Shown: positions 2,970-14,740, numbered from the stretch's first letter. The stretch is 64,000 nucleotides of DNA from Bdellovibrionales bacterium (GCA_019695175.1 JAIBAM010000002.1:62001-126000); one strand, 5' to 3'. A program made the numbers and translations. Notes: generated by a model not told the origin, from the letters alone.

Positions 2970-4811
2970 TCAACTTTTATTATCTACATTTTCAGGTAAA
3001 CCATTAAATGGTGCCTTCACTGTAAAGTCACCCGGTGTATTAAAAATCAACCTCGACGGGTCAAGACCCTTTACCTGATCCATTGGATAACCCAACAACT
3101 TCATAATTGAAGCCCAAAAATCGAATATTTTTAATGGTGAGTTGTTTCCTGTGGAAGGTGCAGGAGCAAAGCGCCCCCAAGTTCCTCTGTACTTTAAATC
3201 AGAATCTCCACCTGTACCGGAAGCATCTCGAAGAATATTTCCGTAAACTTTCAAACCGTTGATTTTTCCAGAAATTAACGAAACATTCGCTGAAGTAGAA
3301 TGATCTGAACCTGAACCATCAGGCAGGTAGCTTTTAATTTTTTCATCGTAAAATTGGTCCCTAGGACTGCGATTAAATTCACCGGCCATATAGATTAATG
3401 TTTCATCAAACATTTTTTTTGTATCTAATTGCGCGATAAGTTCCAACAAACAGGCCGTAAAAGAGAGATAGAACATGCTGTTGATCAAAATCCCCGGCAT
3501 ATAACCCACAAGATGCTGATCGAGCCCTGTTGAATAATCATTGTTTATTTCAACATTCTTCGAAAAATCAAAAGTGTTTGAATTATCAAATTTACACTCT
3601 ACAAATTTCGCAGACAATCTGATGGGGGATGGCACAACTACAGATATAGAAGGACACAAGTTGTTAACCATAAGAAACTCTATCACTGCAAATCGAGCTG
3701 CCAATGTATCCGATTGTGACCTATCTGTGACAAATAAAGACCTTAAATCTATATTGTTGCCAGCAACATTTGCAAAAATTTGGTTGGTGTCCTTTAAATA
3801 GGACCTTAATTCATTTGTTTTCGCATTAAGTTTACCAATGGGTTTATCATTTATTCCAACATAAGTTGTTTTAAAAGTTCTATCTATGAGATCCTTATAT
3901 TTATTAAATAATGTTTCCCAAACAATTGGTAAATTATCAAAAATTGTAATCGTATTGTCATATAGTAAATTCAGTGAATTACCTGCATTTCCTCGTAACG
4001 CCAGATCGTATGATGAAGATCCATTAAGTGCCTCTAGAGCCGATTCAATTTTTTCTAAAACTTTTCTAGAATTGGTTACAACAATATTAGAATAAGAATT
4101 ATTCGTCTTAACTGGAAGTAACGAGCTAAATAAATTTGATAATTCATTAACTTCTCCCCTTTTGACGTTGTATGATGTTGCACTGTAGGAGAGTCGACTT
4201 TTAAAAATGGAACGACTGGAGCCATTCAATATGAGAGATCGTAAGATATTTTTATTTGAAGCCAAATTGGCTCTATCTGCAGTTGGACTATGTATTGTTG
4301 GTTCACCAAAACGACCGGACTGATGAAGAGCATTTGCTGCCTCATGAACTGGAATTCCAACATCAATTCCTCTAAAAGACATTAAATGGCCCAACAAATC
4401 ACTGGCCCTTCTTGTCTTATTATCAGGAGCTGGCACATTCAAACTAAATAAATATGGTACATTATATCCAGAATGTTGTACTGTTCGATACGCCCCATCA
4501 ACATATCGACCCCCATTATCGTTTCCTGAACCCACAACATAAACATTTTTTACCATCGAATTATTCATGAACGCACTGTTACTTAATGGCTTCAAGAAAA
4601 GATCAAAGAACCAGCTTGGCGGAGCTCCAGCAAAATTAATATGTAAAAAATTTTTTATTGCTTGAGAATTTGCTGCTTCTGTAGCCCACAATTTCTGTGT
4701 CTGACTTGCTAAAATTGATGAAAAAACTGTTTCAAATAAATTATATTTTATAATCGTATCACTAAAGTCTTTAATAAACTGTCTTCGTGAGTTTTTCTGT
4801 CTTTTTTTCAT
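2970..4811 (-). CDS. DUF1501-like Tat-exported protein
   Basis: 613 residues. The N-terminus MKKRQKNSRRQFIK carries a twin-arginine-like motif, as in DUF1501 proteins, though the following hydrophobic stretch is weak. The C-terminal third has GEFNRSPR followed by SGSDHSTS, which resembles the EFGRTPR...GRDHW signature of DUF1501 (alkaline phosphatase/sulfatase-like fold). The middle is diverged and lacks an obvious full set of metal ligands, so catalysis is uncertain. It lies 24 bp downstream of the DUF1588-like heme gene and 58 bp upstream of the Hydin-repeat cytochrome lipoprotein, so the three are probably co-transcribed. In Planctomycetes and Myxobacteria DUF1501/DUF1552 genes are typically paired with DUF1592/DUF1588 cytochrome genes, which supports the assignment. 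The function of the family is unknown. Confidence 0.6.
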   Translation of the reverse strand: MKKRQKNSRRQFIKDFSDTIIKYNLFETVFSSILASQTQKLWATEAANSQAIKNFLHINFAGAPPSWFFDLFLKPLSNSAFMNNSMVKNVYVVGSGNDNGGRYVDGAYRTVQHSGYNVPYLFSLNVPAPDNKTRRASDLLGHLMSFRGIDVGIPVHEAANALHQSGRFGEPTIHSPTADRANLASNKNILRSLILNGSSRSIFKSRLSYSATSYNVKRGEVNELSNLFSSLLPVKTNNSYSNIVVTNSRKVLEKIESALEALNGSSSYDLALRGNAGNSLNLLYDNTITIFDNLPIVWETLFNKYKDLIDRTFKTTYVGINDKPIGKLNAKTNELRSYLKDTNQIFANVAGNNIDLRSLFVTDRSQSDTLAARFAVIEFLMVNNLCPSISVVVPSPIRLSAKFVECKFDNSNTFDFSKNVEINNDYSTGLDQHLVGYMPGILINSMFYLSFTACLLELIAQLDTKKMFDETLIYMAGEFNRSPRDQFYDEKIKSYLPDGSGSDHSTSANVSLISGKINGLKVYGNILRDASGTGGDSDLKYRGTWGRFAPAPSTGNNSPLKIFDFWASIMKLLGYPMDQVKGLDPSRLIFNTPGDFTVKAPFNGLPENVDNKS

Positions 4812-8655: not shown

Positions 8656-8976
8656 CACTCCAGACCCTTATTAAAAATTATCATTAAACATTAATAAATT
8701 AATTTTATTCAATAAATGAAGGTCCGCCAATTTATAAAAGGACTAGGCCTTTACTTGCGTCGAGTAAGTCCGAAAATTTACCTAAACCTTAGTAAATATA
8801 AAATATATAATTTGATATAAAAATTCCCATGCCATTAATAAAGATCCAGTTCTTTGAAAAATAAATAAGGTTGAAGGGTTAGAAACCTTCCACCTTATTT
8901 ATTTTTGGTTTATTTTGGTCTAGGATATAAGAACTCTTCCTAAAGACCCATGAAAAGGCCCCTGAGAATTCTTAAC
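8656..8976. other. Intergenic region
   Basis: About 320 bp between the glycine-rich protein gene and copy A of the TSP1/vWA gene. It contains the copy A terminator hairpin near 8860-8906, and AT-rich sequence that should include the promoter of the glycine-rich protein gene. No RNA gene was recognised. Confidence 0.6.
8858..8906 (-). terminator. Rho-independent terminator, TSP1/vWA copy A
   Basis: On the minus strand an arm AATAAGGTGGAAGG is followed by a short loop, then CCTTCAACCTTATT and a T-rich stretch. The stem is about 14 bp with one mismatch. It lies about 70-120 bp after the stop codon at 8977. Confidence 0.75.
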
Positions 8977-10290
8977 TTAGTTTGGACAAGTGTATTCTAT
9001 TGTAACCACCGTGTTTTCAGGAAGGACTGGATTGAATTTCATCACCGATCCTGTCACTGTTGTGGTCGTAGTCATTGCAGGACTTAGAGTCACTTTGGGA
9101 GTGGACATCGGTTGACACTCTAACTGCACATTCTCCAGCTTATTACGAATGATCTCCTTGGTAAATTGCAAGTGACTATAGTAATCGTTGTCACAAATGC
9201 TGCCTACAAAACCACCCGTCATATTGGAAAGCTGATTAAAAAAGGTCCCATAGTAGGATGGAATGTATTCGCCCTCATTGTTCCTCTCTTGTCTGTTTTG
9301 AGCGTTAAAACATTGTTCATCCCCTGGTCTTACTATGATGGAGTTCACAATAAGAGGCTTTACAAAACCACCGCTATTAAATATTTGGCTTACAGTGGCA
9401 ACAAAAGATTCAGGTCGATCCAGATATTCTATATCACGATATTGGGTTGGATTGAGAGCTCGATTTCCTCCCACACTTCGTTCATCCTCGTCTGAAATCA
9501 ATATAACAACTTGTGTTGCCCGCGGCCTGAAACAACCAATGTGACGATAGTTTTTCACGGCTAAATTCATAGCGTAAATCCCTCGTTCATCATTGCTTGA
9601 TTCTGTATATCCAGCTCCGATCCAATCAATCGTGTCACGAAATAGTTTTTCTTTATTCGGTGTATTCTTATTTAAAATTCCACTGGTGTCTTGTTGATTT
9701 TCTGGCTTATCATCATCAACCCAAATCAGTGGACTGCCTTCAAATTCAACAGTATCTGATGTTGTAATACAAGCCTGATAATCCACACCAAGAGTCTCCA
9801 ATCCATTTAAAAAACCTACCATTCGCGAAGCCAACTTGCTGTTGTCTGGGTACATGGAATTGGAATCATCCACGACAAGAAGGATATCAACCTGATTTTG
9901 TCCCGGTTCTACCCTCACCGTCTGTCTCACGGAGCGACCTTGGGGAACACAAACTTGGGTATTGCATGCCTGTTGGACGGAAGGCTTAGTCGCTAATAGA
10001 GCACAAGAACTGTCCCCAACCACTTCCCCATTACTTTGACGACAAATCACACTTCGACTCTGTGTCCCTCCACCACACTGTTTTGAACAAGCTCCCCAGT
10101 CACCCACATCCCAAGTAAGTGAAATGGGTAGAGGGCAATTATCACCCTCACACGTACTTCCCACACTTGACAGACCATTAGAATGAAATTTAACCGGAGC
10201 ACAGGATGTCAGCATAAAAGCTATCCCAACTAAAAATAGATAAAGAAAACTTTTTTTATTTGATAAGTTGTTTACTTTAATCGCACTCAT
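8977..10290 (-). CDS. TSP1 + von Willebrand A lipoprotein, copy A
   Basis: 437 residues. Signal peptide with lipobox LTSC (Cys30), so a lipoprotein. Residues about 58-114 form a thrombospondin type 1 repeat (WDVGDWGAC, CGGGTQSRSV, six cysteines). A vWA domain follows from about 133 with an intact MIDAS motif DDSNS (Asp141, Ser143, Ser145) and ISDEDERS further on. The C-terminal 50 residues are Thr-rich. The start has AAAAGGGG 6-10 bp upstream. The domain pair is best known from adhesive and motility proteins, so a metal-dependent adhesin on the surface is likely but unproven. The amino-acid sequence is identical to the copy at 13243-14556. Confidence 0.85.
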   Translation of the reverse strand: MSAIKVNNLSNKKSFLYLFLVGIAFMLTSCAPVKFHSNGLSSVGSTCEGDNCPLPISLTWDVGDWGACSKQCGGGTQSRSVICRQSNGEVVGDSSCALLATKPSVQQACNTQVCVPQGRSVRQTVRVEPGQNQVDILLVVDDSNSMYPDNSKLASRMVGFLNGLETLGVDYQACITTSDTVEFEGSPLIWVDDDKPENQQDTSGILNKNTPNKEKLFRDTIDWIGAGYTESSNDERGIYAMNLAVKNYRHIGCFRPRATQVVILISDEDERSVGGNRALNPTQYRDIEYLDRPESFVATVSQIFNSGGFVKPLIVNSIIVRPGDEQCFNAQNRQERNNEGEYIPSYYGTFFNQLSNMTGGFVGSICDNDYYSHLQFTKEIIRNKLENVQLECQPMSTPKVTLSPAMTTTTTVTGSVMKFNPVLPENTVVTIEYTCPN

Positions 10291-10310
10291 AAAAACCCCT
10301 TTTATATATT

Positions 10311-10332
10311 TTCACATTCCTAATTATGTGAA
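10311..10332. promoter_or_regulatory. Inverted repeat upstream of vWA copy A
   Basis: TTCACAT - 8 bp - ATGTGAA, lying 20-40 bp upstream of the start codon in the likely promoter. A second inverted repeat, TGTTTCA-TCT-TGAAACA, lies at 10388-10404. Both are preserved in copy B. They are candidate operators; the regulator is unknown. Confidence 0.45.
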
Positions 10333-10467
10333 TTACAAGGGGCGTACCATGCCAAAGCGAATTCAATTGGATTTGACTTCATCACTCTGTTTCATCTTGA
10401 AACACAGTTCTCTTTTTTGTTCTGTATCGTAAAAAAAATGAGCATGTCTCAAAATGAGAAAAATATT

Positions 10468-10482
10468 CTGACTTCGTCGATT
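10468..10482 (+). repeat. Left 15-bp terminal inverted repeat
   Basis: CTGACTTCGTCGATT. Its first six bases overlap the end of direct repeat copy A. An additional inverted repeat (TTGAAATGA, 7-bp loop, TCATTTCAA) lies directly inside it at 10483-10507. Confidence 0.85.
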
Positions 10483-10556
10483 TTGAAATGAACACAAGTC
10501 ATTTCAATAACCTGTCAACCCCCTAAATATATACAACTAGACGGCGTAAAAAAGTT

Positions 10557-10610
10557 GTCTGTGATATATCTGCGGCTAGAAGGGTCTGTGATATATCAGA
10601 GGCTAGAAGG
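10557..10610. repeat. Two 27-bp tandem repeats downstream of fic
   Basis: 10557-10583 and 10584-10610 share GTCTGTGATATATC and GGCTAGAAGG, with two mismatches. They lie about 75 bp past the fic stop codon, near the left end of the island. They could be a binding site for a recombinase or a remnant of a transposon end. Confidence 0.9.
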
Positions 10611-10683
10611 TATGGGCCTTAGAGAAGAAGAGCCTGACGCTTTACGATCGTCTTTTGCCGCATTTCTTACTGCTCATGAAAAC

Positions 10684-12087
10684 TCACTGCAAATTCTTCC
10701 ACTCTTGGAATTCGCTCGGTCGAATTTTGAACCGCGCGATATTTCCGTCGTGGAGGCTGAGGACTTCTGTTTCTATTAGCTTAAACAACTCCGCGGAATC
10801 AGCCTCGGGAAGCTTTTTCGCTTCCAGAAGAATCTGAATGCGATAAACCACCTGTGGCCCAGCCACTTTTTCCAGGATCACGGTGCGAATGATCTCTTGA
10901 ATCTCACCTCGGTATTTCAGCTTGAGCAGGTTTGGCTCTCCCACTGTCTGCTGAATCGCCGAATAGCGCTGCGCCGACCGCGTGTAGGCCCAAAGGTAAA
11001 GATCGCGGAAAAGGCTCACGTCGTTTTTCTCGTAAACGCCGAGAAGAGATTTAACGTAGGCTTCATTTTCCACGTCCATAAACGAAAGCGGCCGCAAATT
11101 CTTTTTGATCAGCGAGATATTCGCCGCAAGGCGTGCAGTGCGCTTGTTCACATCCTCGAAAGCTTGCATGTATGAGAGTTGCACCAACGCGAAGAAGGAT
11201 TGCTCAAATGGATCTTCGATGAGGTTGAGTTTCTCGATAAAAATCTGAAAGCACTCTTTCAAAATGTGCGGGTTTTCGAGCGGCATATAGTTCGTGCCGC
11301 CAATGCCCACCGCAATTTGACGAACGCGACCCGATGCACTCGGATCCCCCAAGAGGTTTTCTGAAAGAAGTGCGTGGATACTGCACACCTCGTGGAAGCT
11401 GATTTTTTCTTCAGCCGCCGATTCGATGATATATTCGATAGCTCCCTTGTGGTTCAAAATCATCTGCGTTTCGGAGGCATCTTTGCCGGATGCACTTTCG
11501 CCGAGTTCGATGAGGCGCTTGGTTTCCAAGAGAGAATAAGTATTTCCCTCGAGGCGGCTTGAGTTCCACGACAGGTCGATCAAAAGGCGATTCAAAATAT
11601 TGCGTGCATACGTTCCCGCGGGTCGAGCCGCGCTTTCGGCAGTACCCGTTTTCAAGAGCTCCGCCCGTTGAGCGTCCGTGAGGTAGAAGGATTTATTCGG
11701 CTCATACGCGCGCAGGAAATCCTGTTTGTATCCAACCGGCGCACGCGCCTGGAGCGATTGAGAAACGTATTTCAAAAGGCGTACACTCTCTTGGGAGAGA
11801 GGAATATCTTTGAAGGATTTCAAGCCTTCCTGTGGTTTCGGCGCTTCGGCCGCGGCGGGAGTGGTAGTGGTCAGGGCGGCATACACGCGCGCGCGCGCGG
11901 CCCCGCGTGCCTCGAGCACTCCGCGCTCCACGAGCGTCGTAAGCACACGGCGGATCGCTTTTCGATCGCCTTCATCCGACTTTAACATCCCGGCCGCTTG
12001 AGCAACGTCGGGCACGCTGATCTCTTTTTTTTCTTTCAGGAGCCCTAAAACGAGCGCCTCAAGATCAGCCTTTTTCTTTGCCACCAT
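10684..12087 (-). CDS. wHTH-Fic family protein with a non-canonical Fic motif
   Basis: 467 residues from Met at 12087, which has GTGGAG 5 bp upstream; a longer frame from 12147 would read into the operators. Residues about 8-72 look like a winged helix-turn-helix, and a Fic domain covers about 170-370. An inhibitory-helix motif SSRLEG (about 176-181) fits self-inhibited class II Fic proteins. The active-site loop reads QAFEDVNKRTAR (about 308-319) where AMP-transferring Fic proteins have HxFx(D/E)GN(G/K)RxxR, so the catalytic His is Gln and the Gly is Val. AMPylation is therefore doubtful and a DNA-binding or regulatory role is likely. GC content is well above its neighbours', pointing to horizontal transfer. 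Confidence 0.8.
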   Translation of the reverse strand: MVAKKKADLEALVLGLLKEKKEISVPDVAQAAGMLKSDEGDRKAIRRVLTTLVERGVLEARGAARARVYAALTTTTPAAAEAPKPQEGLKSFKDIPLSQESVRLLKYVSQSLQARAPVGYKQDFLRAYEPNKSFYLTDAQRAELLKTGTAESAARPAGTYARNILNRLLIDLSWNSSRLEGNTYSLLETKRLIELGESASGKDASETQMILNHKGAIEYIIESAAEEKISFHEVCSIHALLSENLLGDPSASGRVRQIAVGIGGTNYMPLENPHILKECFQIFIEKLNLIEDPFEQSFFALVQLSYMQAFEDVNKRTARLAANISLIKKNLRPLSFMDVENEAYVKSLLGVYEKNDVSLFRDLYLWAYTRSAQRYSAIQQTVGEPNLLKLKYRGEIQEIIRTVILEKVAGPQVVYRIQILLEAKKLPEADSAELFKLIETEVLSLHDGNIARFKIRPSEFQEWKNLQ

Positions 12088-12106
12088 ATTTACTCCACAT
12101 TCGGAA

Positions 12107-12238
12107 TATCGGGACAGTTTTTGTCCCAATACCCCCATATAATGCATTATATTCTTATTTTTGTCCCAATTTCAATTATCGGGACAAGATTGTGTCCCGA
12201 TACCCAGATTTTTGTCCCAATTCACATATATTGGGACT
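12107..12238 (-). promoter_or_regulatory. fic promoter with GGGACA/TGTCCC operator array
   Basis: Seven half-sites of the form TTGTCCC(A/G)AT occur within about 130 bp: paired at 12107-12130, single at 12161-12170, a perfect palindrome with 10-bp arms at 12177-12202 (TATCGGGACA, 6 bp, TGTCCCGATA), and paired at 12212-12238. On the minus strand a promoter TTGAAA (12175-12170), 18-bp spacer, TATAAT (12151-12146) has one half-site inside the spacer. The palindrome ATATAATGCATTATAT (12137-12152) overlaps the -10 box. Autoregulation by the wHTH-Fic protein is the simplest reading. Confidence 0.75.
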
Positions 12239-12289
12239 GAGGCCCTTTTTAGCCGTCCTTTCGCCGCTATAGCTCTCGCAGGCGGTCCG

Positions 12290-12596
12290 CGAAAACGTCG
12301 CGCCGCCGCGCGCGCCCCGCGATCCCTCGATTTGAGGGTGATCGGCACACAAAGCCCCACCAGGCGCGACAGCGTGCACTCGTGAAGCATCACCCGCAGC
12401 TCCTCCGGGGTTATGATTCGTGGTCATGAAGGTAGGAAGATCCGAGTTCAGCCGCCAATCCAGGATTTGAAAAAGAAGCTCAGTTTCCCAGGGCTTTTCT
12501 TGCTGGGCTCCAAGATCATCCAGAAAGAGCACGTCGGCAGGGTATCGTTGAACACCGGCTCCGCGCAGGATCCTCGCAGGCAAAATCTTTTGTCAT
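12290..12596 (-). pseudogene. Truncated, frameshifted dnaC-like helicase-loader fragment
   Basis: On the minus strand, reading from about 12596, the frame gives ADVLFLDDLGAQQ, a Walker B region, then LDWRLNSDLPTFMTTNHNP, the sensor-1 region of DnaC/DnaI-type loaders. The frame then breaks at a CCCC run near 12405. In the next frame EELRVMLHECTLSRLVGLC continues the family pattern. A one-base insertion explains the break. The Walker A half is missing. IstB of IS21 elements is an alternative, but the TTNHNPEEL pattern fits DnaC better. Confidence 0.6.
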
Positions 12597-12617
12597 CCGA
12601 TCGAAGAGAACCGGCCG

Positions 12618-12644
12618 CTCTAAGTTTTAGTAGAAAACTTAGAG
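12618..12644. repeat. Perfect 11-bp inverted repeat
   Basis: CTCTAAGTTTT - AGTAG - AAAACTTAGAG, immediately beyond the truncation point of the dnaC-like fragment. It may be a terminator-like hairpin or a recombination scar. Confidence 0.85.
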
Positions 12645-13114
12645 CTTCTCTCAGACAATGGTTGTCATTACGATGCAAAGATCTTTCGCAACGAAATAAA
12701 ACGCCTCGGCATTAACCATGGGTTATGTTGAAAAATTAGCTTAAAAGTGCTCGCGTCATACCTGTCCCATCTGCTGGGATTGGACAGTGTTGAAAATGTG
12801 GGTGCACTACACCGTCACCGATTATTATAAATTCCGTCCGATTTTTTTTAAGCGATATTCAAGTCACAATTCCTGCGCATTTTTCCGAAAAATAAAAATT
12901 AGAATTTGAGTGGGTGTGACTTCACCGGCCAGCTGGTTTTACCATGGGGTTTTTTAATTTGTTTTACAAACATAACCCCAATTGAAATTAAAAATTCCTA
13001 AAAGGCAAAATAAATCAAAAAAACGCTAGGTCCCTACAAGGGCAGTTTAAAAAAATTAAGACTTATTCTTCGATTAAAGATCTGTTCAGACCCTTCTACA
13101 AAAATGAGTTTTTT
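12645..13114. other. Non-coding right part of island
   Basis: About 470 bp with no convincing gene on either strand. The base composition falls back to AT-rich. It contains A/T runs and the imperfect inverted pair GGGGTTTT.../...AACCCC near 12945-12980. No transposase remnant was recognised. Confidence 0.5.
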
Positions 13115-13129
13115 AATCGACGAAGTCAG
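13115..13129 (-). repeat. Right 15-bp terminal inverted repeat
   Basis: AATCGACGAAGTCAG, the exact reverse complement of 10468-10482. It is followed within two bases by the hairpin of the second TSP1/vWA unit. Confidence 0.85.
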
Positions 13130-13130
13130 G

Positions 13131-13175
13131 AATAAGGTGGAGGGTTTCTAACCTTCCACCTTATTTATTTTTGGT
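13131..13175 (-). terminator. Rho-independent terminator, TSP1/vWA copy B
   Basis: Stem AATAAGGTGGAGGG / CCTTCCACCTTATT followed on the minus strand by sequence of the same type as in copy A. Relative to copy A the loop AGA is replaced by its reverse complement TCT, and the left arm differs by a one-base deletion and substitutions. It serves the gene ending at 13243. Confidence 0.65.
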
Positions 13176-14740
13176 TTATTTTGGTCTAGGATATAAGAAC
13201 TCTTCCTAAAGACCCATGAAAAGGCCCCTGAGAATTCTTAACTTAGTTTGGACAAGTGTATTCTATTGTAACCACCGTGTTTTCAGGAAGGACTGGATTG
13301 AATTTCATCACCGATCCTGTCACTGTTGTGGTCGTAGTCATTGCAGGACTTAGAGTCACTTTGGGAGTGGACATCGGTTGACACTCTAACTGCACATTCT
13401 CCAGCTTATTACGAATGATCTCCTTGGTAAATTGCAAGTGACTATAGTAATCGTTGTCACAAATGCTGCCTACAAAACCACCCGTCATATTGGAAAGCTG
13501 ATTAAAAAAGGTCCCATAGTAGGATGGAATGTATTCGCCCTCATTGTTCCTCTCTTGTCTGTTTTGAGCGTTAAAACATTGTTCATCCCCTGGTCTTACT
13601 ATGATGGAGTTCACAATAAGAGGCTTTACAAAACCACCGCTATTAAATATTTGGCTTACAGTGGCAACAAAAGATTCAGGTCGATCCAGATATTCTATAT
13701 CACGATATTGGGTTGGATTGAGAGCTCGATTTCCTCCCACACTTCGTTCATCCTCGTCTGAAATCAATATAACAACTTGTGTTGCCCGCGGCCTGAAACA
13801 ACCAATGTGACGATAGTTTTTCACGGCTAAATTCATAGCGTAAATCCCTCGTTCATCATTGCTTGATTCTGTATATCCAGCTCCGATCCAATCAATCGTG
13901 TCACGAAATAGTTTTTCTTTATTCGGTGTATTCTTATTTAAAATTCCACTGGTGTCTTGTTGATTTTCTGGCTTATCATCATCAACCCAAATCAGTGGAC
14001 TGCCTTCAAATTCAACAGTATCTGATGTTGTAATACAAGCCTGATAATCCACACCAAGAGTCTCCAATCCATTTAAAAAACCTACCATTCGCGAAGCCAA
14101 CTTGCTGTTGTCTGGGTACATGGAATTGGAATCATCCACGACAAGAAGGATATCAACCTGATTTTGTCCCGGTTCTACCCTCACCGTCTGTCTCACGGAG
14201 CGACCTTGGGGAACACAAACTTGGGTATTGCATGCCTGTTGGACGGAAGGCTTAGTCGCTAATAGAGCACAAGAACTGTCCCCAACCACTTCCCCATTAC
14301 TTTGACGACAAATCACACTTCGACTCTGTGTCCCTCCACCACACTGTTTTGAACAAGCTCCCCAGTCACCCACATCCCAAGTAAGTGAAATGGGTAGAGG
14401 GCAATTATCACCCTCACACGTACTTCCCACACTTGACAGACCATTAGAATGAAATTTAACCGGAGCACAGGATGTCAGCATAAAAGCTATCCCAACTAAA
14501 AATAGATAAAGAAAACTTTTTTTATTTGATAAGTTGTTTACTTTAATCGCACTCATAAAAACCCCTTTTATATATTTTCACATTCCTAATTATGTGAATT
14601 ACAAGGGGCGTACCATGCCAAAGCGAATTCAATTGGATTTGACTTCATCACTCTGTTTCATCTTGAAACACAGTTCTTTTTTTTGTTCTGTATCGTAAAA
14701 AAAAATGAGCATGTCTCAAAATGAGAAAAATATTCTGACT
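13150..14740. repeat. Long direct repeat, copy B (about 1.59 kb)
   Basis: Second copy of 8884-10473, ending at TATTCTGACT, where copy A runs on into the island's inverted repeat. Recombination between A and B would remove 4.27 kb, that is one gene copy and the whole island. Confidence 0.95.
13243..14556 (-). CDS. TSP1 + von Willebrand A lipoprotein, copy B
   Basis: 437 residues, identical in protein sequence to the gene at 8977-10290: lipobox Cys30, TSP1 repeat at about 58-114, vWA domain with MIDAS motif at 141-145. It keeps the same upstream sequence, including the inverted repeat at about 14577-14598, so it should be expressed and regulated like copy A. Whether A or B is the ancestral copy cannot be told from this window; B keeps unique flanking DNA upstream (14741 onward), and A keeps it downstream. 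Confidence 0.85.
   Translation of the reverse strand: MSAIKVNNLSNKKSFLYLFLVGIAFMLTSCAPVKFHSNGLSSVGSTCEGDNCPLPISLTWDVGDWGACSKQCGGGTQSRSVICRQSNGEVVGDSSCALLATKPSVQQACNTQVCVPQGRSVRQTVRVEPGQNQVDILLVVDDSNSMYPDNSKLASRMVGFLNGLETLGVDYQACITTSDTVEFEGSPLIWVDDDKPENQQDTSGILNKNTPNKEKLFRDTIDWIGAGYTESSNDERGIYAMNLAVKNYRHIGCFRPRATQVVILISDEDERSVGGNRALNPTQYRDIEYLDRPESFVATVSQIFNSGGFVKPLIVNSIIVRPGDEQCFNAQNRQERNNEGEYIPSYYGTFFNQLSNMTGGFVGSICDNDYYSHLQFTKEIIRNKLENVQLECQPMSTPKVTLSPAMTTTTTVTGSVMKFNPVLPENTVVTIEYTCPN

What the first reader, a model, noticed from the sequence alone, without database searches (positions are those of the whole stretch)
8884..14740. Excisable island bounded by 15-bp inverted ends and 1.59-kb direct repeats
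A 2.66-kb foreign segment with exact 15-bp terminal inverted repeats lies precisely between near-identical whole transcription units. Recombination across the repeats would remove exactly the island plus one gene copy (4.27 kb). No transposase is visible, so the mechanism that created a unit duplication together with an insertion is unclear and could be a new type of gene-capture or circular intermediate.
Basis: partly seen in the sequence, partly recalled or inferred. Interest (0 to 1): 0.68.

Follow-up and report, generated by a model that had tools for sequence, protein, structure and literature searches.

The report
IS1634 insertion duplicating a whole gene
The "island" is a decayed jumping gene of the IS1634 family that now carries a foreign Fic gene instead of its transposase, and the two 1.6-kb copies around it are most likely its target-site duplication, an unusually long form of the footprint this family is known to leave, here long enough to duplicate a whole gene with its promoter.

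Summary
Two copies of a 1.60-kb unit (8864-10467 and 13131-14734, 99.6% identical) flank a 2.66-kb, GC-richer segment with perfect 15-bp inverted ends. The 15-bp ends occur 16 times in this genome and belong to an IS1634-family element. An intact relative (1,875 bp, 547-aa transposase, NF033559 E=4e-104) lies in a Bdellovibrionales MAG; its two ends align to the two ends of the island, whose transposase interior is replaced by a Fic gene and IS debris. IS1634 and IS1549 are published as making long, variable target duplications (8-514 bp). I found 18 further insertions with both ends recognisable and flanking repeats of 24-682 bp in five phyla; other IS1634 subgroups show 4-6 bp. The 1.6-kb repeats abut the IS ends, so they are best read as a target-site duplication, the longest I found. 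Open: the molecular mechanism, a 6-7-bp microhomology at one junction, whether the element moved already carrying its cargo, and long-read confirmation.

The parts
8864..10467 (.). Left copy of the target-site duplication (repeat R): terminator, 437-aa lipoprotein-like gene with a thrombospondin type 1 domain (8977-10290, minus) and its upstream region
   Evidence: Aligned to 13131-14734 at 99.6%; Pfam PF19030 E=1e-15; abuts the IS end exactly
10468..10511 (-). 3' end of the IS1634-type element (44 bp, with the 15-bp inverted end at 10468-10482)
   Evidence: 93-95% identical to other copies in the genome; matches bases 1832-1872 of the intact relative at 85%
10511..10656 (.). Dispersed ~77-bp repeat (10511-10583, plus a 27-bp tandem unit to 10610) and a 38-bp scrap of another DDE transposase (10619-10656)
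   Evidence: Copies elsewhere in the genome; scrap lies inside a DDE_Tnp_1 gene in contig C32
10684..12147 (-). Cargo: intact Fic-family gene, 487 aa, with N-terminal winged-helix-like region and SSRLEGN inhibitory-type motif
   Evidence: PF02661 E=2e-8, PF03965 E=1e-4; 92% identical to G040, 82-87% in several other families of the phylum; motif check
12107..12231 (.). Cluster of TTTTGTCCCAAT-type repeats upstream of the Fic gene (probable operator sites)
   Evidence: Repeat search, pattern scan; region shared with homologous loci
12176..12583 (-). Frameshifted DnaC/IstB-like ATPase fragment (named by eye; no Pfam hit)
   Evidence: Translation; Pfam none
12640..12786 (+). IS3-like transposase fragment (named by eye, LSDNGCHYDAKIFRNEIKRLGINHGLC, to about 12730) followed by a short dispersed palindromic repeat (12748-12786)
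   Evidence: Translation; repeat copies
12932..13130 (-). 5' end of the IS1634-type element (199 bp, inverted end 13115-13130, start of the decayed transposase gene)
   Evidence: 95-97% identical to other copies; bases 70-194 of the intact relative at 81%
13131..14734 (.). Right copy of the target-site duplication (repeat R) with a second identical 437-aa gene (13243-14556, minus); its terminator hairpin is kept but the downstream T-run is replaced by the IS end

Best explanation
An IS1634-family element inserted at a single-copy gene and left a 1.60-kb target-site duplication, so a promoter-gene-terminator unit now stands on each side of it. The element is in minus orientation; its transposase gene is gone, replaced by a Fic gene of mobile origin and fragments of other insertion sequences. 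Shown: the two inverted ends are the two ends of one IS1634-type element; the repeats abut those ends to within a base or the 6-7-bp overlap; other members of this clade have the same layout with repeats of 24-682 bp; an outgroup has the gene once, next to the same upstream neighbour. Inferred: each IS end joins the target at its own site, for example on sister chromatids or around a replication gap, so the stretch between the sites is duplicated. Also inferred: the element may already have carried the Fic cargo when it inserted, moved by a transposase supplied in trans. Homologous recombination between the repeats can later remove 4.27 kb and restore the single-copy state.
For: Ends: 16 exact copies in the genome, of two types, one leading into a decayed transposase that the IS1634 profile NF033559 recognises at the same places. 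Intact relative G139/SXSU01000092: same ends, transposase 349 bits against a cut-off of 100, both of its ends aligned to the island ends in the right order. CCTGACTT fits the family end consensus C-----YT. Long duplications: published for IS1549/IS1634, 8-514 bp; here 18 insertions of 24-682 bp with both ends recognisable, e.g. 682 bp in Aliarcobacter covering most of a Crp/Fnr gene and 610 bp in Mycobacterium riyadhense. The nearest relative groups with a 117-bp case on the transposase tree. Outgroup G011 has one copy beside the same upstream gene.
Against: 1,604 bp is 2.4 times the longest other case found. The left junction shares TCTGACT with the target, whereas most other cases share 0-2 bp (pPP1 shares GAAAACA), and the outermost C of that IS end is missing. 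No flanking repeats were found for the nearest relative itself (G139) or for three Rhodococcus members. No second insertion in this genome could be paired. Copy structure rests on an assembly.
Confidence: 0.85

Rival explanations
1. The gene was first duplicated in tandem by ordinary unequal recombination or slippage, and the IS-derived island later inserted exactly at the junction.
For: The 6-7-bp microhomology (CTGACT) at one junction is the kind of sequence seen at host-made rearrangements.
Against: It needs two independent events to meet at the same base, and the island has no short target duplication of its own. The one-event layout is found repeatedly in the same IS clade.
Confidence: 0.06
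2. Assembly artefact or mixed population: the chromosome holds one unit and the island plus one unit exists as a free 4.27-kb circle, or the loop was traversed wrongly.
For: The identical core (1,528 bp) exceeds short reads; contigs end ~124 bp inside copies of this IS; the copies differ only near the repeat edges.
Against: The repeats stop at the ends of an IS whose clade makes such repeats, also in plasmid records described as complete. A free circle would most simply be an excision product of this same arrangement.
Confidence: 0.05
3. One-ended transposition: the transposase joined only the 5' end of the IS, and host repair closed the other side by microhomology (CTGACT), duplicating the stretch between. 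A variant of the best explanation in which the length is set by repair rather than by a second strand transfer.
For: The right end keeps the full CCTGACTT terminus while the left end has only CTGACTT and shares TCTGACT with the target.
Against: Most other long duplications in the clade lack such microhomology, and a few other copies in this genome also lack the outer C.
Confidence: 0.2
4. A genuinely new gene-capture or circular-intermediate mechanism, as the reader suggested (for instance a circle carrying one unit and the island integrating by homology into a resident unit).
For: A Campbell-type integration of a unit-bearing circle would give the same layout.
Against: It needs the gene to be on the circle beforehand, with the circle joints at exactly the IS ends; the unit is found nowhere else in the genome and no replication or integration gene is on the island.
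Confidence: 0.02

Closest known systems
IS1634 (Mycoplasma mycoides) and IS1549 (Mycobacterium smegmatis), IS1634 family
   Same: Same transposase family and end type; long, variable direct repeats abutting the ends
   Different: Duplication here is 1,604 bp against a published 8-514 bp; the element here has lost its transposase and carries a Fic gene
IS1634-type insertions surveyed here (Aliarcobacter plasmid NZ_CP099557, 682 bp; Mycobacterium riyadhense NZ_OY970457, 610 bp; G275, 117 bp)
   Same: Flanking repeats stop exactly at CCTGA-type ends
   Different: Transposase genes mostly intact, no cargo, shorter repeats
Mobile insertion cassettes (MIC231 type: IS ends without transposase around passenger genes)
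   Same: Two IS ends in proper orientation, no transposase, an intact passenger gene
   Different: Those cited in PMC2266710 belong to the IS231 subgroup of IS4; movement in trans is not shown here, and the interior looks like an accretion of IS debris

Membership tests
IS1634 family | DDE transposase of the IS1634 type | tested here: not met
   The island has only the first part of a decayed transposase gene; intact and decayed members with the same ends match NF033559. It is therefore filed as a derivative, not as a complete member
IS1634 family | Terminal inverted repeats of the form C-----YT | tested here: met
   CCTGACTT at the right end; left end lacks only the outermost C
IS1634 family | Length 1.5-2.0 kb | tested here: not met
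   2.66 kb because of the cargo; the intact relative is 1,875 bp
IS1634 family, long-duplication members | Long, variable direct repeats abutting both ends | tested here: met
   1,604-bp repeat up to the ends; 18 other insertions
Mobile insertion cassette | IS ends flanking passenger gene(s), no transposase | tested here: met
   Ends and Fic ORF
Mobile insertion cassette | Moved in trans by the parent IS transposase | not testable with these tools
   Only suggested by near-identical repeats around a diverged element; no intact parent copy was found in the assembly, though multicopy contigs may be missing
Composite transposon | Two IS copies flanking the cargo | tested here: not met
   Only one 5' end and one 3' end of a single element are present

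The most novel reading that the evidence does not exclude
In this IS1634 clade each end picks its own target site, probably across sister chromatids or a replication gap, so insertions routinely duplicate whatever lies between, up to whole genes. A cargo-bearing, transposase-less derivative can therefore both import a foreign gene and duplicate a resident one in a single event.
Probability: 0.3. Interest if true: 0.65.

Novelty: new variant of a known kind. Interest (0 to 1): 0.45.

Why it matters
How IS1634-type elements make long, variable target duplications was stated to have no model in 2008 (PMC2266710). A 1.6-kb case that duplicates a complete transcription unit, together with 18 others in five phyla, shows an outcome that mostly needs no shared sequence at the junctions and is concentrated in part of the family, which makes the idea of two independently chosen sites testable. 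It also shows an IS insertion acting as a reversible gene duplication rather than a gene disruption.

Tried and rejected
Pairing the outward flanks of the other IS ends in the genome to find further long duplications: none found, because most copies stop at contig ends. First thought that the left end belonged to an IS3 element (an IS3 orfA follows it in contig C8); rejected when other copies and the intact relative showed it to be the IS1634 3' end. Target repeats around the palindromic mini-elements in C47, C43 and C24: none clear. Two other DDE transposases in the genome (C14, C32) are different elements. A scan of genome contigs with the relative's transposase returned only that relative. 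Mgal1 and Mgal7 were left out of the survey because only one inverted end is recognisable, Mgal4 because no clean repeat abuts its ends, and G296 because its repeat (at least 99 bp) runs into a contig end. No same-species comparator is held; the one same-genus genome has no close orthologue of the duplicated gene. The original IS1549 and IS1634 papers were not held.

Full report
OBSERVATION. The direct repeats, the inverted ends and the spacing are as described. The repeat is 1,604 bp up to the inverted end (1,610 with the shared CTGACT), with 5 mismatches and two single-base indels. Four mismatches and one indel are a flipped hairpin loop in the gene's terminator; the fifth mismatch and a poly-A indel lie near the right edge. 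The unit occurs nowhere else in the genome. The island is 2,662 bp and GC-richer than its surroundings.

WHAT THE ENDS ARE. The 15-bp end occurs 16 times exactly in the 2.6-Mb genome (26 with up to two mismatches, against 9 for the reversed control), often about 124 bp from a contig end, as expected for a multicopy element that broke a short-read assembly. The copies fall into two types, which proved to be the 5' and 3' ends of one element. Downstream of the 5' type runs a decayed transposase beginning MFVKQIKK, and the IS1634 profile NF033559 matches remnants at several of these places. In G139 (a Bdellovibrionales MAG, record SXSU01000092) an intact 1,875-bp element has the ends CTCCTGACTTCGTCG and a 547-aa transposase scoring 349 bits against NF033559 (cut-off 100). 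Its bases 70-194 match the right end of the island and bases 1832-1872 the left end. The island is therefore one IS1634-type element, in minus orientation, whose interior has been replaced.

WHAT REPLACED THE INTERIOR. Between the ends lie a dispersed repeat, a scrap of another DDE transposase, an intact Fic-family gene with operator-like repeats upstream, a frameshifted DnaC/IstB-like fragment, an IS3-like transposase fragment and a short palindromic repeat (the last two gene names are by eye). The Fic protein is 92% identical to one in another family of the same order and 82-87% identical to proteins in several more families of the phylum, while absent from most close relatives, so it travels horizontally. 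In G100 it lies among conjugation-type genes (TraC/VirB4-like and neighbours, named by eye). Its Fic motif reads QAFEDVNKRTAR, with Gln in place of the usual catalytic His.

WHAT THE 1.6-KB REPEATS ARE. They run up to the IS ends on both sides, which is the layout of a target-site duplication. IS1549 and IS1634 were reported to make duplications of 8-514 bp with no mechanistic model (PMC2266710). I examined further IS1634-type insertions. Eighteen with both inverted ends recognisable have exact or nearly exact repeats abutting the ends: 24, 28, 33, 44, 48, 50, 55, 62, 109, 110, 117, 125, 148, 164, 400, about 406, 610 and 682 bp, from Rhodococcus, Mycobacterium, Mycoplasmopsis, Persicobacter, Aliarcobacter and a genome of the window's own phylum. 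Elements of other IS1634 subgroups show 4-6 bp (the shortest of these could be chance). On a transposase tree the long-duplication label is clustered, and the relative nearest to the window's element groups with the 117-bp case; one short-duplication element (Microbacterium) lies inside a long group, and the Mycoplasmopsis copies fall elsewhere, so the trait is not one clean clade. No repeats were found around the G139 copy or three Rhodococcus copies. In G011 the gene is single and lies next to a homologue of the same upstream gene.

MECHANISM. Shown: the layout, its recurrence in related elements, and the single-copy outgroup. Inferred: each end attacks its own target position. The first base outside the end is A at nearly every right junction and at somewhat more than half of the left junctions, as expected if both sites follow one local preference but are chosen separately. 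A 1.6-kb stagger on one duplex would need 1.6 kb of strand separation, so joining of the two ends to sister chromatids, or around a replication gap, is the likelier route; it predicts a matching deletion on the other sister. At the left junction the target and IS end share TCTGACT, and the IS end lacks its outermost C, which leaves room for a microhomology-repaired, one-ended event here.

AGE AND CARGO. The two repeat copies differ by about three events in 1.6 kb. The island's 5' end differs from other copies in the genome at 3-6 of 123 positions plus small indels. This is compatible with a late insertion of an element that had already diverged, and perhaps already carried the cargo, but gene conversion between the repeats or consensus collapse in assembly would look the same.

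CAVEATS. The core of the repeat cannot be resolved by short reads, so the copy number and the absence of a free circle rest on the assembly. No same-species genome was available. The literature library covers open-access papers only; the two original papers were not held, so the 514-bp maximum is taken from the 2008 review and longer cases may have been published since.

Noticed in passing
window 10684-12231: The Fic-family protein and its 86-92% identical homologues share a motif with Gln in place of the catalytic His (QAFEDVNKR), and the gene has an upstream cluster of TTTTGTCCCAAT repeats; it may be an autoregulated, non-AMPylating Fic protein spread with conjugative elements in Bdellovibrionota.
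   Followed up: partly
window 12748-12786; L039 about 4516-4539: A short palindrome, TGTCCAATCTGCTGGGATTGGACA, is dispersed in the genome; in one IS copy (contig C2) it is inserted with an apparent duplication of about 9-11 bp, so it may be a tiny mobile repeat or an excision scar.
   Followed up: no
window 10511-10610: A dispersed repeat of about 77 bp (CTGTCAACCCCCTAAATA...GGCTAGAAGG) with at least ten relatives in the genome, some truncated, including a 27-bp unit repeated in tandem here.
   Followed up: no
window 8874-8883 and 13140-13149: The terminator hairpin loop is inverted between the two copies (GGTTAGAAACC against GGTTTCTAACC), the kind of change made by template switching in a hairpin.
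   Followed up: partly
L047 about 2986-3040 (contig C47:5985-6039); L045 about 3193-3278 (contig C43): Very short palindromic mini-elements made of two copies of the same IS1634 end (55 and about 87 bp), without an obvious target duplication.
   Followed up: partly
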